DNA of 64,000 bases from NCBI RefSeq assembly GCF_023074835.1, contig NZ_JALLGW010000001.1:806001-870000 (forward strand), in the 5' to 3' direction. The notes under the pieces were generated by a model. It did no database searches, was not told where the DNA came from, and saw only the letters and a program-made list of their open reading frames with translations. A program made the position numbers and the translations under genes. The DNA is from Halomarina salina (lineage in GTDB: Archaea > Halobacteriota > Halobacteria > Halobacteriales > Haloarculaceae). Positions within the stretch are counted from its first letter, which is position 1, and each line of letters begins with the position of its first letter. Below, piece by piece: positions 24,518 to 44,783 of this stretch.

Positions 24518-24612
24518 TGGTGTCTGGTGCAGTGGAGAGAGGTTGTGTGTTTCGCCGCTAGGATCTGGTGGTGGTGTGACGAGCGAGGACGACTAGGGCG
24601 AGGATATCTCCG

Positions 24613-25030
24613 AAGCCCTCGGCCCAACGACTACCGGAAGCCTCGCTTCACTCGGCTTCCGTCGTCCCACTCGCTTCGCTCGCGGGACTCGCGCGACCAC
24701 GCCTGCGCTCCTCGCTCGCGTCGCTCGCTGCGGTGCTTGACGGGTCGTGCGTCGTCCTTGGGCCTCGCCCTTCGAGTCCGCCAGGAACTGGCAGCCCTGC
24801 CGTTCCCCGAGTCGCGCGGTCGCTGGCGCGACACGCGCTCCCGGCCACCGCAACCGAAACGGCTGGCCGCGCGCTCGTGCGCGGCCGACGGAGTCGGGTA
24901 GGCGCGGTGCGGCCTTGGCGGATGAAAGGGCGAGCGCTCTCGTTGGCTCCCGGGCGACGTAAGCACTGGAACGAGGCGAAGCTGAGTGAAGCGCGCAGCG
25001 AGCCCCGGAGTCACGAGAGTGCGAGGGCTT
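24613..25030. repeat. Multi-hairpin structured island between hisG and amidohydrolase
   Basis: About 420 bases without a gene, between divergent genes. The outer arms AAGCCCTCG (24613-24621) and CGAGGGCTT (25022-25030) are perfectly complementary. Inside are stems at 24635-24642/24654-24661 (8 bp, 11-base loop TCGCTTCACTC), 24664-24670/24682-24688 (one mismatch, loop TCGCTTCGCTC), 24811-24817/24826-24832 (7 bp), 24865-24872/24879-24886 (8 bp) and 24934-24943/25013-25022 (10 bp with one G-U). The core word GTGCTTACGTCG seen on the minus strand around 24952-24968 recurs in the 43 kb element. Clearly related to that element. Confidence 0.7.
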
Positions 25031-25124
25031 TCCGTTCTCGTTCACTCACGAGTCCCTGACGCAGAAGACACATCCAACACCTAGACCCGATACACTGACA
25101 CGGCCACCGCGAAAACCCGCCCAC

Positions 25125-29085: not shown

Positions 29086-29508
29086 ATGCCGGGCAACAGG
29101 AAGGGGGACCGCCGCGAGCGGGAACTCGTCAACGAACTCCACGACCGGGGGTTCGCGGTCATGCGTGCCCCCGCGAGCGGGTCGAGCACCGACCGCGAAC
29201 TCCCCGACGTCCTCGCCGGCAACGGCGACGTCTTCTACGCTATCGAGGCGAAGGCATCCAACGGACGACCCATCTATCTCACCGGTGAAGAGGTCGAGGC
29301 GCTGGTCTACTTCTCGCAGAACTTCGGTGCGAAACCGCGTATCGGCGTCCGCTTCGACCGCGAGGAGTGGTTCTTCTTCCACCCCGCGGACCTCTACGTC
29401 ACCGACGGTGGCAACTACCGCGTCAAGCAGGAGACGGCGCTCGCCGAGGGGACCGACATCGAGGAACTGACCGGCGGCAGCGCGCAGACGAAGCTCTCGG
29501 GCGACTGA
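29086..29508 (+). CDS. hjc: Holliday junction resolvase Hjc
   Basis: 140 residues of the archaeal Hjc nuclease, which cuts four-way junctions in recombination. The catalytic set is present: a glutamate in [10 protein letters not shown] (about Glu11), Asp41 in RELPDVLAG, and Glu54/Lys56 in [20 protein letters not shown] is the family's conserved basic/Ser region. CGCTTAAGC (29054-29062) is a TATA-like box centred 28 bases before the ATG. The C-terminus is slightly longer than in many homologues. Confidence 0.96.
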
Positions 29509-39106: not shown

Positions 39107-41413
39107 TCAGTCCGCGCGTGGGCCGGTCGAGCGCGGGGTGCGCCGCCCGCCGAGGGTGAACACCCACAGCACCCCGAGGCCGACGCCGTACATCAGGGCG
39201 ACGGGGACGGCGATGAGGAACATCGTGAACAGGCCGCGGGGGGTCAGGAACGCGGCGAGCGCGAACACCGCGGTGACGGCCTCGCGCCAGCGGTCGCGCT
39301 GGAGGTGGAACGGTGCGATGCCGCCCCGGTGGAAGAGGAGCATCGTCGTCGGGATGGCCGCGAGCAACCCGACCCCGACGGTCGTGAAGAACACGAGCCA
39401 GCCGAACGAGTTGATGCGGTACTTGATGAGCATCCCGTTGTTGACGATGTCGGCGGCGAGCCACGAGATGACGTTCGGCGCGACGACGAGGAAGCCGAGG
39501 ACGCTCCCGACGGCGATGGCGATGGCCGTCGTCACCGCCCACGTGAACAGGACGCCGCGGTTGCCCGAGACGAACCCGCGCTCGGAGAGCGCCGGCCACA
39601 TGTAGTAGAGCAGGAGCGGGAGCACCGCCACCGCGCCGATGATCATCGAGAGCTTCACCTCGAAGATGAGCGCCTCGACGGGGTGGAGCGTGACGAGTTC
39701 GAACGCCTCGGGCGAGACGGACTCGGTGAGTCTGACGACGTACCCCGGCGAGAGCGACCCGGCGCCGCCCGTGATGGGGTCGGCACCGACCAGCGGGAAC
39801 TCGACGTAGCCCGCCGTCGGCAGGTTGCGGAGGAACACGCGCTGGAGGTCGCCGATACCGCCGGAGTAGAGCCAGGCGAACGACCCGCCCATCGCCAGCA
39901 TGAAGATGGCGATGAGGCGGAACGACTTCGAGGCGAGGCTGCCGAGGATGAACTGCACGTCGTAGATGTAGCCGCCGACGTCGTCCTCGGTCGTCTCCTC
40001 TTCGGTGAACGAGTCGACCATCCCGGTCGTCGTCCGGGTGAACAGACCCGACTCGTCCTCCTCGGCCGCCTCGCCGGACTGGCCGTCCGCGGTCTCGGCT
40101 TCGTCGGCCCCTTCTCCCGCCGCCTCGGCGGCCTCGGCGCGGGCCTCCTCGGCCTCGTCGTACCGGTCGAGGACGGCCTGGGCCTTCTCGTGGTCGCCGT
40201 CGTCCATCGCCTCGCCAGCGACCGAGAGCGCCTCCTCCTCGTCCATCTCGGCGAACGCTTCGGGCGGCGCGGCCCGGACGCCGGCGGCGTCGAGCGTCCG
40301 CACGTCGATGGCGGCCGGGTCGCCGAACGCACCGGGGTCGTCGACGGCGAGCTGGTCGACGACGCGGAACAGGTGGACGACGTACACCGCGACGGCGACG
40401 ACGAGGGCGACGATGGCCGCCGCGACGAGGACGCCCGTCTCCGGGGCGACGCCGAACAGTTCACCGGGCGTCGCCAGCTGGACCCGGTACTCCGCCGGGA
40501 GGTTCGTCAGCGCGCGGTTTGCGCGCTCGATGCCGTTCGCTGCGAGCGCGCCGTAGGTGACGAGGCCGCCGAGCAGTGCCCCGCCGAGGAGGGTGTTCCA
40601 GTTCGACCGGGCGATAGCGCGGAGCCCGACCGCGTCGCCCGAGCGCTTGACGGAGACGACGATCTTCGTCATCCCGAGGCTGAACGCGTAGAGGAACAGC
40701 AGCGGAATCGCCCACATGATCTGCGTGAACGGGTCGGGCGGGGAGAACACCGCACCGAACGCGAAGATGGCGACGACCGCGTAGCGCCACTTGTCGCGGA
40801 ACGTCTCGTAGCGGACGAGTTCGCCGTAGGCGAGCGACGCCATCGCCAGGGGCAACTGCGCGGCGAGCCCGAACGAGAGCGTCAGGAACAGGACGAACTC
40901 GGCCCACTTCACGATGGAGTAGTCCGGCGAGAACCCGGCCTGTGCGGCGTTCGAGGAGAGGAACTCGAACATGACCGGGAAGAAGACGTAGTAGCCGTAG
41001 GCGATGCCCAGCAGGAACAGGACTACCGAGACGACGGCCATCCCCGCCACCTGCCAGACGGGAATCGGGTGGTCGGGCCACAGGCCGCGACGGCGGAGCG
41101 CGTCGCGGCCGTAGTAGACGAACAGCGGCAACGAGAGGATTGCTCCGATTATGAGTCCGATCTTCGCCTGCAGGAGGATGACGTCGAACGGGGTGACGGC
41201 GATGATGTTCGCGTCCGGGGCACGGGCCAGGAGGTCCGCCTTGAGCATGTCCCAGCCGTAGTAGTAGAGGTAGAGGATGGTCCCCAGCAGACCGAACAGG
41301 AACACGAGCGCCACCTTCTGGAGGTGTTTCTGCGTCGCGCGAAGCATCTCGCCGACGGCCGCCCGGCCGTCGAGAAATGCCCGTTTCGTATCGTCGTCGA
41401 TGGCGCTCGACAC
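39107..41413 (-). CDS. tatCt: Double TatC translocase subunit (TatC-TatC fusion)
   Basis: 768 residues consisting of two TatC domains joined by an acidic linker (about residues 355-480, rich in Glu/Ala/Asp) and extra helices, 14 membrane spans by eye. The first domain begins GEMLRATQKHLQKVALVFLF and contains GFSPDYSIVKWAEFVLFLTL; the second has SMIIGAVAVLPLLLYYMW and INSFGWLVFFTTVG. Such fusions are known only from haloarchaea (TatCt), which export most secreted proteins folded via Tat. The GTG start at 41413 is set by minus-strand TTGATAGC 26 bases upstream. It is divergent from the single tatC. Confidence 0.95.
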   Translation of the reverse strand: MSSAIDDDTKRAFLDGRAAVGEMLRATQKHLQKVALVFLFGLLGTILYLYYYGWDMLKADLLARAPDANIIAVTPFDVILLQAKIGLIIGAILSLPLFVYYGRDALRRRGLWPDHPIPVWQVAGMAVVSVVLFLLGIAYGYYVFFPVMFEFLSSNAAQAGFSPDYSIVKWAEFVLFLTLSFGLAAQLPLAMASLAYGELVRYETFRDKWRYAVVAIFAFGAVFSPPDPFTQIMWAIPLLFLYAFSLGMTKIVVSVKRSGDAVGLRAIARSNWNTLLGGALLGGLVTYGALAANGIERANRALTNLPAEYRVQLATPGELFGVAPETGVLVAAAIVALVVAVAVYVVHLFRVVDQLAVDDPGAFGDPAAIDVRTLDAAGVRAAPPEAFAEMDEEEALSVAGEAMDDGDHEKAQAVLDRYDEAEEARAEAAEAAGEGADEAETADGQSGEAAEEDESGLFTRTTTGMVDSFTEEETTEDDVGGYIYDVQFILGSLASKSFRLIAIFMLAMGGSFAWLYSGGIGDLQRVFLRNLPTAGYVEFPLVGADPITGGAGSLSPGYVVRLTESVSPEAFELVTLHPVEALIFEVKLSMIIGAVAVLPLLLYYMWPALSERGFVSGNRGVLFTWAVTTAIAIAVGSVLGFLVVAPNVISWLAADIVNNGMLIKYRINSFGWLVFFTTVGVGLLAAIPTTMLLFHRGGIAPFHLQRDRWREAVTAVFALAAFLTPRGLFTMFLIAVPVALMYGVGLGVLWVFTLGGRRTPRSTGPRAD

Positions 41414-41434
41414 ACCGGACCTAGCCAACTCCGT

Positions 41435-41442
41435 GCTATCAA
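41435..41442 (-). promoter_or_regulatory. TATA-like box of the double tatC gene
   Basis: Minus-strand TTGATAGC centred 26 bases before GTG 41413. The divergent tatC gene has its own AGGCTTACA (41466-41474), so both promoters share an 88-base gap. Confidence 0.52.
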
Positions 41443-41501
41443 TCTTTTCCGTCGCGGTGGGTGAGAAGGCTTACAACAGCGCGGTGACCTACGAAACTGT
41501 A

Positions 41502-42998
41502 ATGACTGGCGACGAGCGGCGGAACCCCGACGACGAGGTGTCGGGTAGCCAGGGGAGCCCCGAGGGCTCGCCAGAAACCGGCGACGACGCTGGTGACGCC
41601 GACGCCGCCGACGCGCCCGAGGACCGGACCGACCTCGATGCACTCACCTACAAGGAACTCCAGTCGCTCGCGGCCGACCACGGCATCGCCCCCGTGGGTC
41701 ACGGGAAAGACGACCTCCGGGAACTCATCGCCGACGCACGAGGGTCCGACGGAGCGGTCTCCGACGACGGCGTCGACGCCGATTCGGAGAGTGTCGACAC
41801 CGACGTCGACGAGGGTGCCGACTCCGACGCGGACGAGGGCGACGACGGTCGACTGAACGAGATTCCGACGGTCGACCCCGACGACCCGGCGGCGGGGAGC
41901 GGCTGGGCGAACGACGAGTCGACGGACAGTGACGCCACTGCCGACGCCGCGGATACCGCGGCGGGCGAGACCGACGATTCCGACGTGGACGGCGACGACT
42001 CGACCGAAGACGACGGCTCGATTCCCGACTGGGCACGGAGCGACGAACCCGCCACCGAGGACATCGTCGGGCCGACACAGGACGACGACGACCTCCCGGA
42101 AGCACCGGACCGCCCCGACCCGAACGAGGAACTGGCCCACGACGCACCGTTCGAAGCGGTCGAGGGCGACAGCGAGGACGACCTGGCCCAGTCCGACGGC
42201 GGCGCGACGGTCGTCGACGGCGACAAACCGGAGGTAGACTACGACTACTACGACGACGGGGGCTTCGCCGACGGGCCGGAAGCGGACCAGGAGATGCCGC
42301 TGGCCGACCACATCGAGGAGATGGTCAAACGGCTCGGCATCGTCATCCTCTCGATGGCGCTGGTGAGCGTCCTCGTCCTCCCGTTCGCCGTCGACCTCAT
42401 CAACTTCATCTGGTACTCCATCCTCGGGTCGGTCCAGAACAGCGTCACCAGCCCGCGGGCGTACCAGCCGCTGTCGCTCGTCCTCGCACGACTGAAGGTG
42501 GCGACGCTGGCCGGGTTCGTCATCGCGTTACCGGTGTTCGTCTACGAGACGTACCTGTTCATGCGCCCCGGCCTGTACAAACACGAGCGACGCTACTACC
42601 TCGCGGCCGTCCCGACCAGCCTCGTCCTCGCGTTCATCGGCGTCGCGTTCGCGTTCTACCTCGTCCTCCCGTTCATCTTCAGCTACTTCGTCAGCTACTC
42701 CGAGCAGGCCGCCGACATCGCGTTCGGCCTGACCGAGACGTTCGGGCTGATGCTCCTCCTGATGGGTTTCTTCGCCGCCGTCTTCCAGATACCGCTGCTC
42801 ATCATGCTGGCGGTGATGATGGGGCTGACCACGCGGGAGTGGCTGGCACAGCGCCGCCTCTACTTCTGGGGTGGGTTCCTCGGCGTCGCCCTGCTGTTCA
42901 GCCCCGACCCGACCGGGATGGCCCCGTTCATCGTCGCCATCACGATGGTCATCCTGTTCGAGGGGACGCTGCTGCTCCTGCGCTGGACCCAGCGCTAG
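41502..42998 (+). CDS. tatCo: TatC translocase subunit with long acidic N-terminal extension
   Basis: 498 residues. The C-terminal 235 residues are a complete TatC: MPLADHIEEMVKRLG (the conserved N-terminal helix), FVYETYLFMRPGLYKHERR with the conserved FxxPxL-like segment, and LLFSPDPTGM. The first 265 residues are extremely acidic, with a SAP-like segment at about 44-80 (LDALTYKELQSLAADHGIAP). This domain is presumably cytoplasmic. The extension is longer than in typical TatC. Divergent from the double tatC, with 88 bases between starts. Confidence 0.93.
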   Translation: MTGDERRNPDDEVSGSQGSPEGSPETGDDAGDADAADAPEDRTDLDALTYKELQSLAADHGIAPVGHGKDDLRELIADARGSDGAVSDDGVDADSESVDTDVDEGADSDADEGDDGRLNEIPTVDPDDPAAGSGWANDESTDSDATADAADTAAGETDDSDVDGDDSTEDDGSIPDWARSDEPATEDIVGPTQDDDDLPEAPDRPDPNEELAHDAPFEAVEGDSEDDLAQSDGGATVVDGDKPEVDYDYYDDGGFADGPEADQEMPLADHIEEMVKRLGIVILSMALVSVLVLPFAVDLINFIWYSILGSVQNSVTSPRAYQPLSLVLARLKVATLAGFVIALPVFVYETYLFMRPGLYKHERRYYLAAVPTSLVLAFIGVAFAFYLVLPFIFSYFVSYSEQAADIAFGLTETFGLMLLLMGFFAAVFQIPLLIMLAVMMGLTTREWLAQRRLYFWGGFLGVALLFSPDPTGMAPFIVAITMVILFEGTLLLLRWTQR

Positions 42999-43568
42999 GA
43001 GTTTTTCGGGGCGCTTTGGGAATAGAAGATTTCACGCGAGGTGTATCTGGTGCCGTTGGTACCACCTCGAAAGCCCCCGCTCTCTCGTGGCCTGCGACTC
43101 GTTGCGCGCCTCGCTCGCTTCGCTCGCTGTGGTGCTTACGTCGTCTCGGCTCACGAGAGAGCGGCCCCTTTCAGTCCACCCGCGTCGACTGTTCGGCCAG
43201 CCATCGCGGGTGGACTGAAAGGGGCGACTCGCTGGGCGAAGGCAGGCGACGCAAGCACGCGAACGCAGTGAGCGCGCGCAGCGAGCCTCCCGAGTCCAGC
43301 GAGTCGGGGCTTTCGAGGTGTACACGATTCAGTTCCAATCGACGACGAACCAGAATACGAATCCTAGGAGCGATACGCTTTTTCGGGTTCACGGTCTCCT
43401 CACGAACATGCACGCTGTCTGCTGGCGCTGGCACGCCCTCTCGCCAGCGGACAGTCCCGTCGTCGCGCCCGCCGCGGCCTAACCCGGTCGGACGCACGAC
43501 TGGTGCTCACTCGCTGTTCTCCCGACGCTCGTTCGACTCTGACCACGGCAATCCATAGCACACGCAGT
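42999..43568. other. 570-base gap holding the 43-kb cloverleaf element
   Basis: Between tatC and trpS. The middle (43063-43320) is the inverted-repeat element described separately. The remainder (43321-43568) shows no structure that I could identify, and the start of trpS has no strong TATA box. Confidence 0.55.
43063..43320. repeat. 258-bp palindromic element folding as a four-way junction
   Basis: Four perfectly complementary arm pairs are contiguous: outer 15 bp (43063-43077/43306-43320), arm II 13 bp (43077-43089/43152-43164), arm III 20 bp (43165-43184/43205-43224, CCCCTTTCAGTCCACCCGCG and its complement) and arm IV 11 bp (43225-43235/43296-43306). No unpaired base separates the arms. 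The loops of arms II and IV are diverged inverted copies that share GTGCTTACGTCG or GTGCTTGCGTCG. A partner element lies at 24.6-25.0 kb. No reading frame fits. Confidence 0.85.
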
Positions 43569-44783
43569 ATGCACGACACCGACGACCCCGACCACGACGA
43601 CACCGACACGACCGACGAATCGCACGCCGAGACAGCACAGACAGCAGACACGCCCGACGAGTACGAGCGCCTCGTCAGCGAGTTCGGGGCCGACCCGCTG
43701 ACCGACGAGCAGCGCGCTCGCTTCCCCGACGCCCCGCCGCTGGTCCGACGCGGCCTCGCCTACGCGGGGCGTGACCTCGACCGCTTCCTCGCCAGCGCGG
43801 AGGCCGGTGAACGCGTCTCCGTCGTCACGGGCGTGGGCCCCTCCGGGCCGATGCACCTCGGGCACGTCGTCGCGTTCTCGCTGGCGAAGTACCTGCAGGA
43901 GGCGTTCGGCGCGTTCGTCTCCATCCCGCTCTCGGACGACGAGAAGTACTGCACCCGCGAGCAGACGCTGGCCGAGACCCGCGCCTACACCCGCGACAAC
44001 CTCCGTGACGTGCTGGCGTTCGGCTTCGACCCGGACCGGACGCGCATCGTGGTCGACACCGCCGACGCGGACGTGCTCTACCCCCTCGCGACGGCGCTGG
44101 CGAAGGACGTGACACCGGCGACGTACGAGGCGGTGTACGGCGAGGCGAGCAACGTCGGCGAGTCGTTCTACCCGGCGATGCAGGCCGCCCACCTCCTGCT
44201 CCCGCAGTTGGTCGACGGCCCACACCCGACCACCGTCCCCATCGCCGTCGACCAGGACCCGCACGTTCGACTGGCGCGTGACCTCGCCGCCAAGGAGCGC
44301 TTTCCGGTCTCCAAGCCCGGCGCGTTGCTGGCGAAGTTCCTCCCGGCACTGTCCGGGCCGGGGAAGATGAGTTCCTCCGACGACGCGCCGCGCATCGACC
44401 TGACCGCCGACCGCGAGACGGTCCGCGACGTGGTGCTGGAGCACGCCTACTCCGGCGGGCAGGACAGCCTCGACGCGCACCGCGAGCACGGCGGCGACCC
44501 GGAGGTGGACGTGGCGTTCCAGTACCTCCGGGCGGTGTTCGAACCCGACGACGAGACCCTGGAGCGACTCGACCGCGAGTACCGGTCGGGCGACCTGCTG
44601 ACGGGCGAACTGAAGGCCCACGCCGCCGACCGAATCAGCGAGTTCCTGGAGGCCCACCAGTCCAGGCGGCCGAGCGACGACGAACTGGACGAGGTCCTGG
44701 AACCGTACCTGCTGACCGACGACGAGCGCGAGCGAGCGCTGTCGCGGGTCGGTCTCGGTCCGGGAGTCTCACGCGTCGACTGA
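43569..44783 (+). CDS. trpS: Tryptophan--tRNA ligase
   Basis: 404 residues of a class I synthetase. The HIGH-type motif is GPMHLGHVV and the KMSKS-type motif GKMSSSDD. YCTREQTLAETRAYTRDNLR and VPIAVDQDPHVRLARDL are typical of archaeal/eukaryotic TrpRS. The N-terminal 45 residues are acidic (HDTDDPDHDDTD). Haloarchaea often carry two TrpRS paralogues; which one this is cannot be told. The start at 43569 is the first ATG giving an acidic N-terminus. Confidence 0.93.
   Translation: MHDTDDPDHDDTDTTDESHAETAQTADTPDEYERLVSEFGADPLTDEQRARFPDAPPLVRRGLAYAGRDLDRFLASAEAGERVSVVTGVGPSGPMHLGHVVAFSLAKYLQEAFGAFVSIPLSDDEKYCTREQTLAETRAYTRDNLRDVLAFGFDPDRTRIVVDTADADVLYPLATALAKDVTPATYEAVYGEASNVGESFYPAMQAAHLLLPQLVDGPHPTTVPIAVDQDPHVRLARDLAAKERFPVSKPGALLAKFLPALSGPGKMSSSDDAPRIDLTADRETVRDVVLEHAYSGGQDSLDAHREHGGDPEVDVAFQYLRAVFEPDDETLERLDREYRSGDLLTGELKAHAADRISEFLEAHQSRRPSDDELDEVLEPYLLTDDERERALSRVGLGPGVSRVD

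What the first reader, a model, noticed from the sequence alone, without database searches (positions are those of the whole stretch)
43063..43320. 258-bp element whose perfect arms tile into a gap-free four-way junction
Four arm pairs of 15, 13, 20 and 11 bp are exact complements, and the end of each is the beginning of the next: outer 43063-43077/43306-43320, II 43077-43089/43152-43164, III 43165-43184/43205-43224, IV 43225-43235/43296-43306. Arms II and IV are diverged inverted copies (their loops share the core GTGCTTACGTCG or GTGCTTGCGTCG), yet each pairs with itself rather than with the other half. That pattern suggests selection for a cruciform or a multibranched RNA rather than a simple palindrome from duplication. 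I know of no named haloarchaeal element with this shape. It could be a structured RNA, a MITE-like mobile element, or a DNA cruciform bound by a junction protein such as Hjc (encoded at 29086).
Basis: seen in the sequence. Interest (0 to 1): 0.9.

Follow-up and report, generated by a model that had tools for sequence, protein, structure and literature searches.

The report
Widespread haloarchaeal hairpin-bearing mobile DNA element
The sequence is one copy of a previously unnamed, non-coding, apparently mobile DNA element found in tens of copies in most salt-loving archaea examined, whose hairpin arms keep changing sequence while staying perfectly self-complementary, which suggests that the folded shape of the DNA, not its letters, is what matters.

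Summary
The four perfect arm pairs are real. They are not unique: the 258 bp is a 'double' copy of a dispersed repeat family. The basic unit is about 105-120 bp (GAAAGCCC, arm, conserved loop, arm, CCCCTTTCAGTCCCACCCG). The double is two units head to head with a fixed 33-37-nt centre, and the gap-free junction follows from that geometry. The own genome (genus Halomarina) holds at least 45 units, and 33 of 37 genomes of its family have it. It is 97% intergenic, not found in viral collections, and orthologous sites differ in presence between close relatives.

In several lineages the unit sits inside 205-220-bp elements with IS6-family terminal repeats (GGTAGTGTTCAGATAAG) and 8-bp target duplications, so there it is an IS6-type MITE. 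The window copy lacks those ends; it is bounded by CTAGGA...TCCTAG.

Pairing is strongly conserved: 94.8% of cells pair, 342 double-sided changes against 104 in shuffles. G-U wobbles are rare and equal on both strands, so no sign of RNA selection. Best reading: a non-autonomous mobile element whose fold is kept at the DNA level. Why the fold is kept, and a codon-phased tail at each end, are unexplained. Closest known: SMR-A elements of Haloquadratum.

The parts
42995..43367 (.). probable full element (373 bp): CTAGGA-tail, unit A, centre, unit B, tail-TCCTAG
   Evidence: CTAG at 42995 and 43364 only; CTAG enriched at element ends and 3-phased to GAAAG; triplet composition stops at CTAG; the insert is absent at this site in five congeners
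43063..43077 (+). outer arm, 5' side (CACCTCGAAAGCCCC)
   Evidence: exact complement of 43306-43320
43306..43320 (+). outer arm, 3' side
43069..43184 (+). unit A, orientation A: GAAAGCCC - arm - conserved loop - arm - CCCCTTTCAGTCCACCCGCG
   Evidence: member of the 60-unit alignment; model R1 hit G000:C1:849069-849184
43077..43089 (+). arm II 5' side; sequence hypervariable between copies, always complementary
43152..43164 (+). arm II 3' side
43165..43184 (+). arm III 5' side / conserved inner tag CCCCTTTCAGTCCACCC(G)
   Evidence: near-invariant in alignment; used as pattern, found only in Halobacteria bar one probably mis-binned MAG
43185..43204 (.). centre of the double element (apical loop of stem III)
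   Evidence: inner-tag spacing 33-37 nt in 23 of 24 doubles
43205..43224 (-). arm III 3' side / inner tag of unit B
43203..43314 (-). unit B, orientation A on the minus strand
   Evidence: second row of the 60-unit alignment
43225..43235 (+). arm IV 5' side (CGACTCGCTGG)
43296..43306 (+). arm IV 3' side (CCAGCGAGTCG)
42995..43068 (-). left tail, CTAG to GAAAG (74 bp); the CTAG contains the tatC stop codon
43315..43367 (+). right tail; outward frame FRGVHDSVPIDDEPEYES* ends at TAG of CTAG
24923..25032 (-). another unit of the same family (long-interior class; CTAG at 24558/24593 and 25081)
41277..42998 (+). left neighbour, TatC-family gene
   Evidence: PF00902, E 5.5e-43
43503..44783 (+). right neighbour, class I W/Y tRNA synthetase (probably trpS; the true start may be further in)
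   Evidence: PF00579, E 4.6e-26

Best explanation
It is a non-autonomous, MITE-like transposable element of Halobacteria. Its body is one or two copies of a hairpin-forming DNA unit, and its ends are transposon ends moved in trans. In several lineages the ends are those of IS6-family insertion sequences, with 8-bp target duplications (shown). In Halomarina, including the window copy, the ends are CTAGGA...TCCTAG and the mobilising enzyme is unknown (inferred). The hairpin pairing is kept at the DNA level while the arm sequence drifts. I infer that the folded hairpin (extruded, or formed on single-stranded DNA during replication or transposition) with its conserved loop is what a host or transposition factor recognises, helped by self-templated correction between the arms. 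The four-way junction of the window copy is the geometry of two units fused head to head with a fixed centre, not a separate invention.
For: Copies: at least 45 units in the own genome, 33 of 37 family genomes positive, up to 81 units in one (lower bounds because only 99 candidates per genome were scored). Dispersed and intergenic: only 3% of 120 elements overlap predicted coding sequence. Site polymorphism: at tatC the element is in G000, G007 and G002 but not in G001, G003-G006; relatives also lack it at other own sites. IS6 link: GGTAGTGTTCAGATAAG brackets about 700-bp elements with a PF13610 transposase. Unit-bearing elements of about 205-220 bp carry the same ends, with target duplications of 8/8, 7/8, 7/8 and 6/8 in four copies against 0.32 expected. 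Structure: 94.8% of cells pair, 342 double changes against 104 shuffled and 37-58 slid. One locus in three species has three different arms, all perfectly complementary; between G000 and G007, 3 of 13 arm pairs changed against 4 of 62 loop bases. Wobbles: 25 on one strand, 29 on the other, of 1434 cells. Doubles keep a fixed centre.
Against: The window copy itself has no recognised transposon family end and no target duplication was shown for it. No autonomous element with CTAG ends and no transposase between paired units was found. IS6 transposition needs only the terminal repeats, so it does not explain why the inner fold is conserved. Intergenic regions diverge too fast among congeners to read the exact insertion junction. 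Some absences are tails-only derivatives, so part of the polymorphism is loss. The triplet phasing of the tails has no place in this model.
Confidence: 0.65

Rival explanations
1. A structured non-coding RNA (or cis-regulatory RNA) spread by duplication; the covariation reflects selection on the transcript.
For: Covariation as strong as in known RNA families, conserved loop sequences, one prevailing loop orientation in 143 of 150 scored units.
Against: No Rfam match. G-U pairs are 0.5% of arm cells, and wobbles are equal on the two strands (3 and 8 in arms; 25 and 29 overall), whereas RNA selection favours one strand. Doubles carry the unit in both orientations. Sporadic presence between close species. 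No consistent orientation to neighbouring genes. The wobble test is weak: tRNA acceptor stems in this genome have only 2.4% G-U.
Confidence: 0.15
2. A REP/BIME-like host-domesticated element acting in chromosome organisation, transcription termination or mRNA end protection.
For: Intergenic, palindromic, tens of copies, tandem and inverted arrangement like BIMEs.
Against: Elements are under-represented between convergent genes (12 of 100, against 21% of all gene pairs) and frequent between divergent ones (31 of 100, against 22%), opposite to terminators. Copies are not conserved in position. The unit is much longer than a REP.
Confidence: 0.12
3. A DNA four-way junction (cruciform) selected as the binding site of a junction protein such as Hjc.
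For: The arms of doubles tile without gaps, and doubles have a fixed centre length.
Against: Most elements are single units that make one hairpin, not a junction (24 strict doubles of about 140 elements). Nothing ties Hjc to it.
Confidence: 0.05
4. Neutral palindrome: the arms stay complementary only through self-templated correction or gene conversion, with no function.
For: Loops and whole interiors do flip between arms, so arm-arm interaction happens. Arms change faster than loop.
Against: Loop and end tags are conserved across the order, and short inner helices of 2-4 pairs also covary, which plain correction does not require.
Confidence: 0.12

Closest known systems
SMR-A small mobile repeats of Haloquadratum walsbyi (PMC3119063)
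   Same: About 110 bp, non-coding, prominent inverted ends, tens of copies per genome, haloarchaeal, mobilisation described there as enigmatic; said to insert in palindromes of other elements.
   Different: SMR-A are reported without target duplications and as lodging in PATE/IS605 elements; here IS6-type ends with 8-bp duplications occur. Covarying arms were not reported in the text read.
IS6-family (IS240 clade) MITEs of archaea (PMC7986276 mentions two IS6-family MITEs)
   Same: Terminal repeat GGTAGTGTTCAGATAAG, 8-bp target duplication and about 205-220 bp in several lineages.
   Different: The inner structured unit is shared with elements that lack IS6 ends, including the window copy; it is not an internal deletion of an IS6 element as far as seen.
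PATE elements (PMC3119063)
   Same: Haloarchaeal, non-coding, palindrome-bearing, numerous.
   Different: PATEs lack inverted terminal repeats and derive from IS605; here ends are inverted and no IS605 link was seen.
REP/REPIN/BIME repeats of bacteria
   Same: Intergenic palindromes, alone or in inverted pairs with fixed spacing.
   Different: Unit of 105-120 bp with hypervariable arms; REPs are 20-40 bp with conserved sequence (PMC3733652).
Integron attC sites (from general knowledge)
   Same: Structure rather than arm sequence is kept; recognised as folded single strand.
   Different: No arrays, no cassettes, no integron integrase context; different core sequences.

Membership tests
IS6-family MITE | IS6 terminal inverted repeats | tested here: not met
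   Not met for the window copy. Met for copies in other lineages: TGTTCAGATA at 34-52 bp outside GAAAG.
IS6-family MITE | 8-bp target duplication | tested here: inconclusive
   Met in L130 (GCGGAACA, 8/8), L177 and L115 (7/8), L113 (6/8), against 0.32 expected. Not seen at the window copy, one side of which is an inversion breakpoint.
IS6-family MITE | no transposase inside, partner transposase in the same genome | tested here: met
   No transposase-like ORF between units; two PF13610 matches in the own genome, one with the repeat 43 bp downstream.
SMR-A (Haloquadratum) | about 110 bp with inverted terminal repeats, no target duplication | tested here: inconclusive
   Unit size fits; duplications were found in the IS6-ended copies.
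SMR-A (Haloquadratum) | sequence homology to HqIRS42/43/55 and insertion in PATE/IS605 palindromes | not testable with these tools
   Their sequences are in supplements for which no look-ups were allowed.
Known structured RNA family (Rfam 15) | match above gathering score | tested here: not met
   0 matches in the whole window.
Structured RNA in general | one-sided tolerance of G-U pairs on the transcribed strand | tested here: not met
   25 and 29 wobble cells on the two strands; weak power.
REP/REPIN | 20-40-bp palindrome with conserved tag and RAYT transposase | tested here: not met
   Unit of 105-120 bp, arms not conserved. RAYT was not searched.
PATE | no terminal inverted repeats, IS605-like near-terminal palindromes | tested here: not met
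   Ends are inverted repeats; no IS605 search was made.
Four-way-junction element | all copies can form the junction | tested here: not met
   24 strict doubles among 164 units.
Integron attC | array next to an integron integrase | not tested
   Copies are dispersed singly in intergenic DNA; no integrase search was made.

The most novel reading that the evidence does not exclude
A fold-recognised DNA module: an order-wide hairpin whose base pairing, not sequence, is selected, read as folded single-stranded or cruciform DNA by a dedicated host or transposition factor, and able to ride in different transposon backbones (IS6 ends in some lineages, CTAG ends in others), with a codon-phased tail as part of the recognised end.
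Probability: 0.25. Interest if true: 0.85.

Novelty: new variant of a known kind. Interest (0 to 1): 0.55.

Why it matters
It puts a common but apparently unnamed repeat on the map of most haloarchaeal genomes examined, links part of it to IS6 transposition by terminal repeats and target duplications, and offers a lead on how the enigmatic small mobile repeats of haloarchaea move. If the fold itself is what is recognised, it would be a rare archaeal case of selection on DNA shape with free sequence, testable with hundreds of natural variants. The copies also sit at rearrangement points: a 37-kb inversion in the window breaks at this element.

Tried and rejected
Rfam scan: nothing. Viral contigs and phage records: no match, so not virus-borne as far as these collections show. 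Reading the tails as a gene: the outward frame ends in TAG but has no start codon, and unit length is not a multiple of three. Reading the tails as a long hairpin with each other: only the inner 11 bp pair (66%), the rest is at chance. Tail-tail palindromes as stand-alone targets: the pattern search returned many matches that look like ordinary coding sequence. Looking for an autonomous element with a transposase between inverted units: none. G-U asymmetry: first looked one-sided in arms, but over all helices it is balanced. Target-duplication test was first run one base out of register and gave nothing; corrected, where registers 4 and 6 serve as controls.

Full report
OBSERVATION. The four arm pairs exist exactly as described. 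The region folds far better than shuffles (z = -10.7). Two bases, 43077 and 43306, are claimed by two arms each. The neighbours are a TatC-family gene ending at 42998 and a class I tRNA synthetase gene starting after 43503.

IT IS A REPEAT. A search of the own genome with the 258 bp gave 45 matches at some 27 places, many covering only one half. In 40 relatives, 27 genomes matched, again as full doubles or as halves. Genus g1 is Halomarina, because G001 contains the plasmid NZ_CP100450 of Halomarina sp. BCD28. All were Halobacteria except one MAG labelled Bacteroidetes, probably mis-binned. There were none in 2.9 million viral contigs and none in phage records.

ANATOMY. The unit reads GAAAGCCC, arm of 11-13 nt, a second short helix, a conserved loop (CTCGCTGCGCTCCTCG ... 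GTGCTT(A/G)CGTCG) with a variable apical hairpin, then the arm complement and CCCCTTTCAGTCCCACCCG. A double is two units head to head; the spacing between inner tags is 33-37 nt in 23 of 24 strict doubles. The gap-free junction follows from this layout: GAAAGCCCC of one unit pairs with GGGGCTTTC of the other, and the two inner tags pair to make stem III. Single units, the majority, make one hairpin.

STRUCTURE IS CONSERVED, SEQUENCE OF THE ARMS IS NOT. In 60 units of many genera, 94.8% of 1794 cells are standard pairs. There are 342 cells changed on both sides (shuffled 104 +/- 7.6; slid versions 37-58), and 21 of 30 pairs show such changes. At the tatC site, three congeners have arms CCGCTCTCTCGTG, CCGCGGTCTGGTG and CCGCGTTCTCGGT, each perfectly complementary to its partner. 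Between G000 and G007 the arm changed at 3 of 13 pairs, the loop at 4 of 62 bases. Wobbles: 3 (one strand) and 8 (other strand) of 600 arm cells, and 25 and 29 of 1434 over all variable helices. tRNA acceptor stems of this genome, taken as a control, have 5 of 210. So nothing favours one strand, and RNA selection is not supported, though the test has low power in so G+C-rich a genome.

MOBILITY. Element-free orthologues exist: at tatC the element is in G000, G007 and G002 and absent in G001 and G003-G006, where the gap is short and tail-free. Joined flanks of five other own copies match relatives without the element. Two of those empty sites look like derivatives that kept the tails and lost the unit, so loss also occurs. 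Elements overlap predicted coding sequence in only 3% of cases and are scarce between convergent genes.

IS6 LINK. In Halonotius, Halapricum and several Halobacteriales MAGs, the unit lies 34-52 bp inside TGTTCAGATA...TATCTGAACA. The longer form GGTAGTGTTCAGATAAG brackets about 700-bp elements encoding a PF13610 (DDE_Tnp_IS240) protein, with 8-bp duplications such as CTACCTAG. One such repeat lies 43 bp beyond the own genome's IS240-type transposase gene; the reversed pattern gave no hit in 146 genomes. Four unit-bearing elements show 8-bp duplications of 8/8, 7/8, 7/8 and 6/8; permuted flanks give 0.32 on average and at most 3 in 3000 trials. A review of the IS6 family states 8-bp duplications, GG tips with cTGTt motifs, and two known MITEs (PMC7986276). 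For these lineages the element is an IS6-type MITE.

THE WINDOW COPY HAS OTHER ENDS. Halomarina, Halorarius, Haloarcula and others show CTAG outside the GAAAG end: 51 cases in 162 flanks where about 6 are expected. In 42 of 51 the distance is 2 modulo 3. Between CTAG and GAAAG the composition has period three (G 49%, C 13% at one phase); beyond CTAG it does not. I therefore take CTAG as the element boundary (42995-43367 here). Read outward, the frame closes with TAG, but no start codon is in frame and the unit length does not keep frame. This is unexplained.

REARRANGEMENTS. In G007 and G002, tatC, element and a phosphoglycerate-mutase-like gene (named from its sequence by eye, not by a family search) lie in a row. 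In the window that gene is 37 kb away, so the window carries an inversion whose breakpoint is the outer end of this element; the other breakpoint near 5.8 kb keeps a CTAG and a tail-like remnant. The interior of the element is flipped as a block between G000 and G007, and 7 of 150 scored units have the loop flipped between the arms.

MECHANISM. Shown: dispersal, polymorphism, IS6 ends and duplications in some lineages, conserved pairing, fixed double geometry. Inferred: movement in trans by a transposase acting on the ends; maintenance of pairing at the DNA level, by recognition of the folded hairpin, by correction between arms, or both. Not shown: which enzyme moves the CTAG-ended copies, and whether the fold is needed for movement.

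NOVELTY. No paper with this sequence or description was found in the open-access library; subscription papers and ISfinder were not searchable. The nearest description is the SMR-A class of Haloquadratum (PMC3119063), similar in size and kind but not comparable by sequence here. I rate it a new variant of a known kind (non-autonomous mobile element).

Noticed in passing
   Followed up: partly
window about 5771-43320: A 37-kb inversion relative to Halomarina oriensis (G002) and G007, with one breakpoint exactly at the outer end of this element and a tail-like remnant at the other.
   Followed up: partly
L029:1506-1765, L027:2979-3081: Loop inverted between its own arms (7 of 150 scored units), and the whole interior of the tatC element flipped between two species.
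   Followed up: partly
24558-25084: Second family copy in the window, of a long-interior class with a G+C-rich interior seen also in L009, L011 and L019; not characterised.
   Followed up: partly
L224, L228, L230: IS6-type MITEs of about 206-207 bp with 8-bp duplications in which the end-tag search (one mismatch allowed) did not find this unit; possibly a sister MITE family.
   Followed up: no
L102:1682 (Haloarcula rara), L156, L026: Tandem duplications of the GAAAG end, 45 or 57 bp apart and so in the same triplet phase.
   Followed up: no
L190:1695-1800 and L189: Orthologous sites that seem to keep both tails but have lost the structured unit.
   Followed up: partly
L009, L015, L020, L025: Further hairpin inserts (ACCAGAACGC..GCGTTCTGGCTGGCTCG) at one fixed place in the loop (after ACGTCGTC), perhaps another small mobile repeat.
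   Followed up: no
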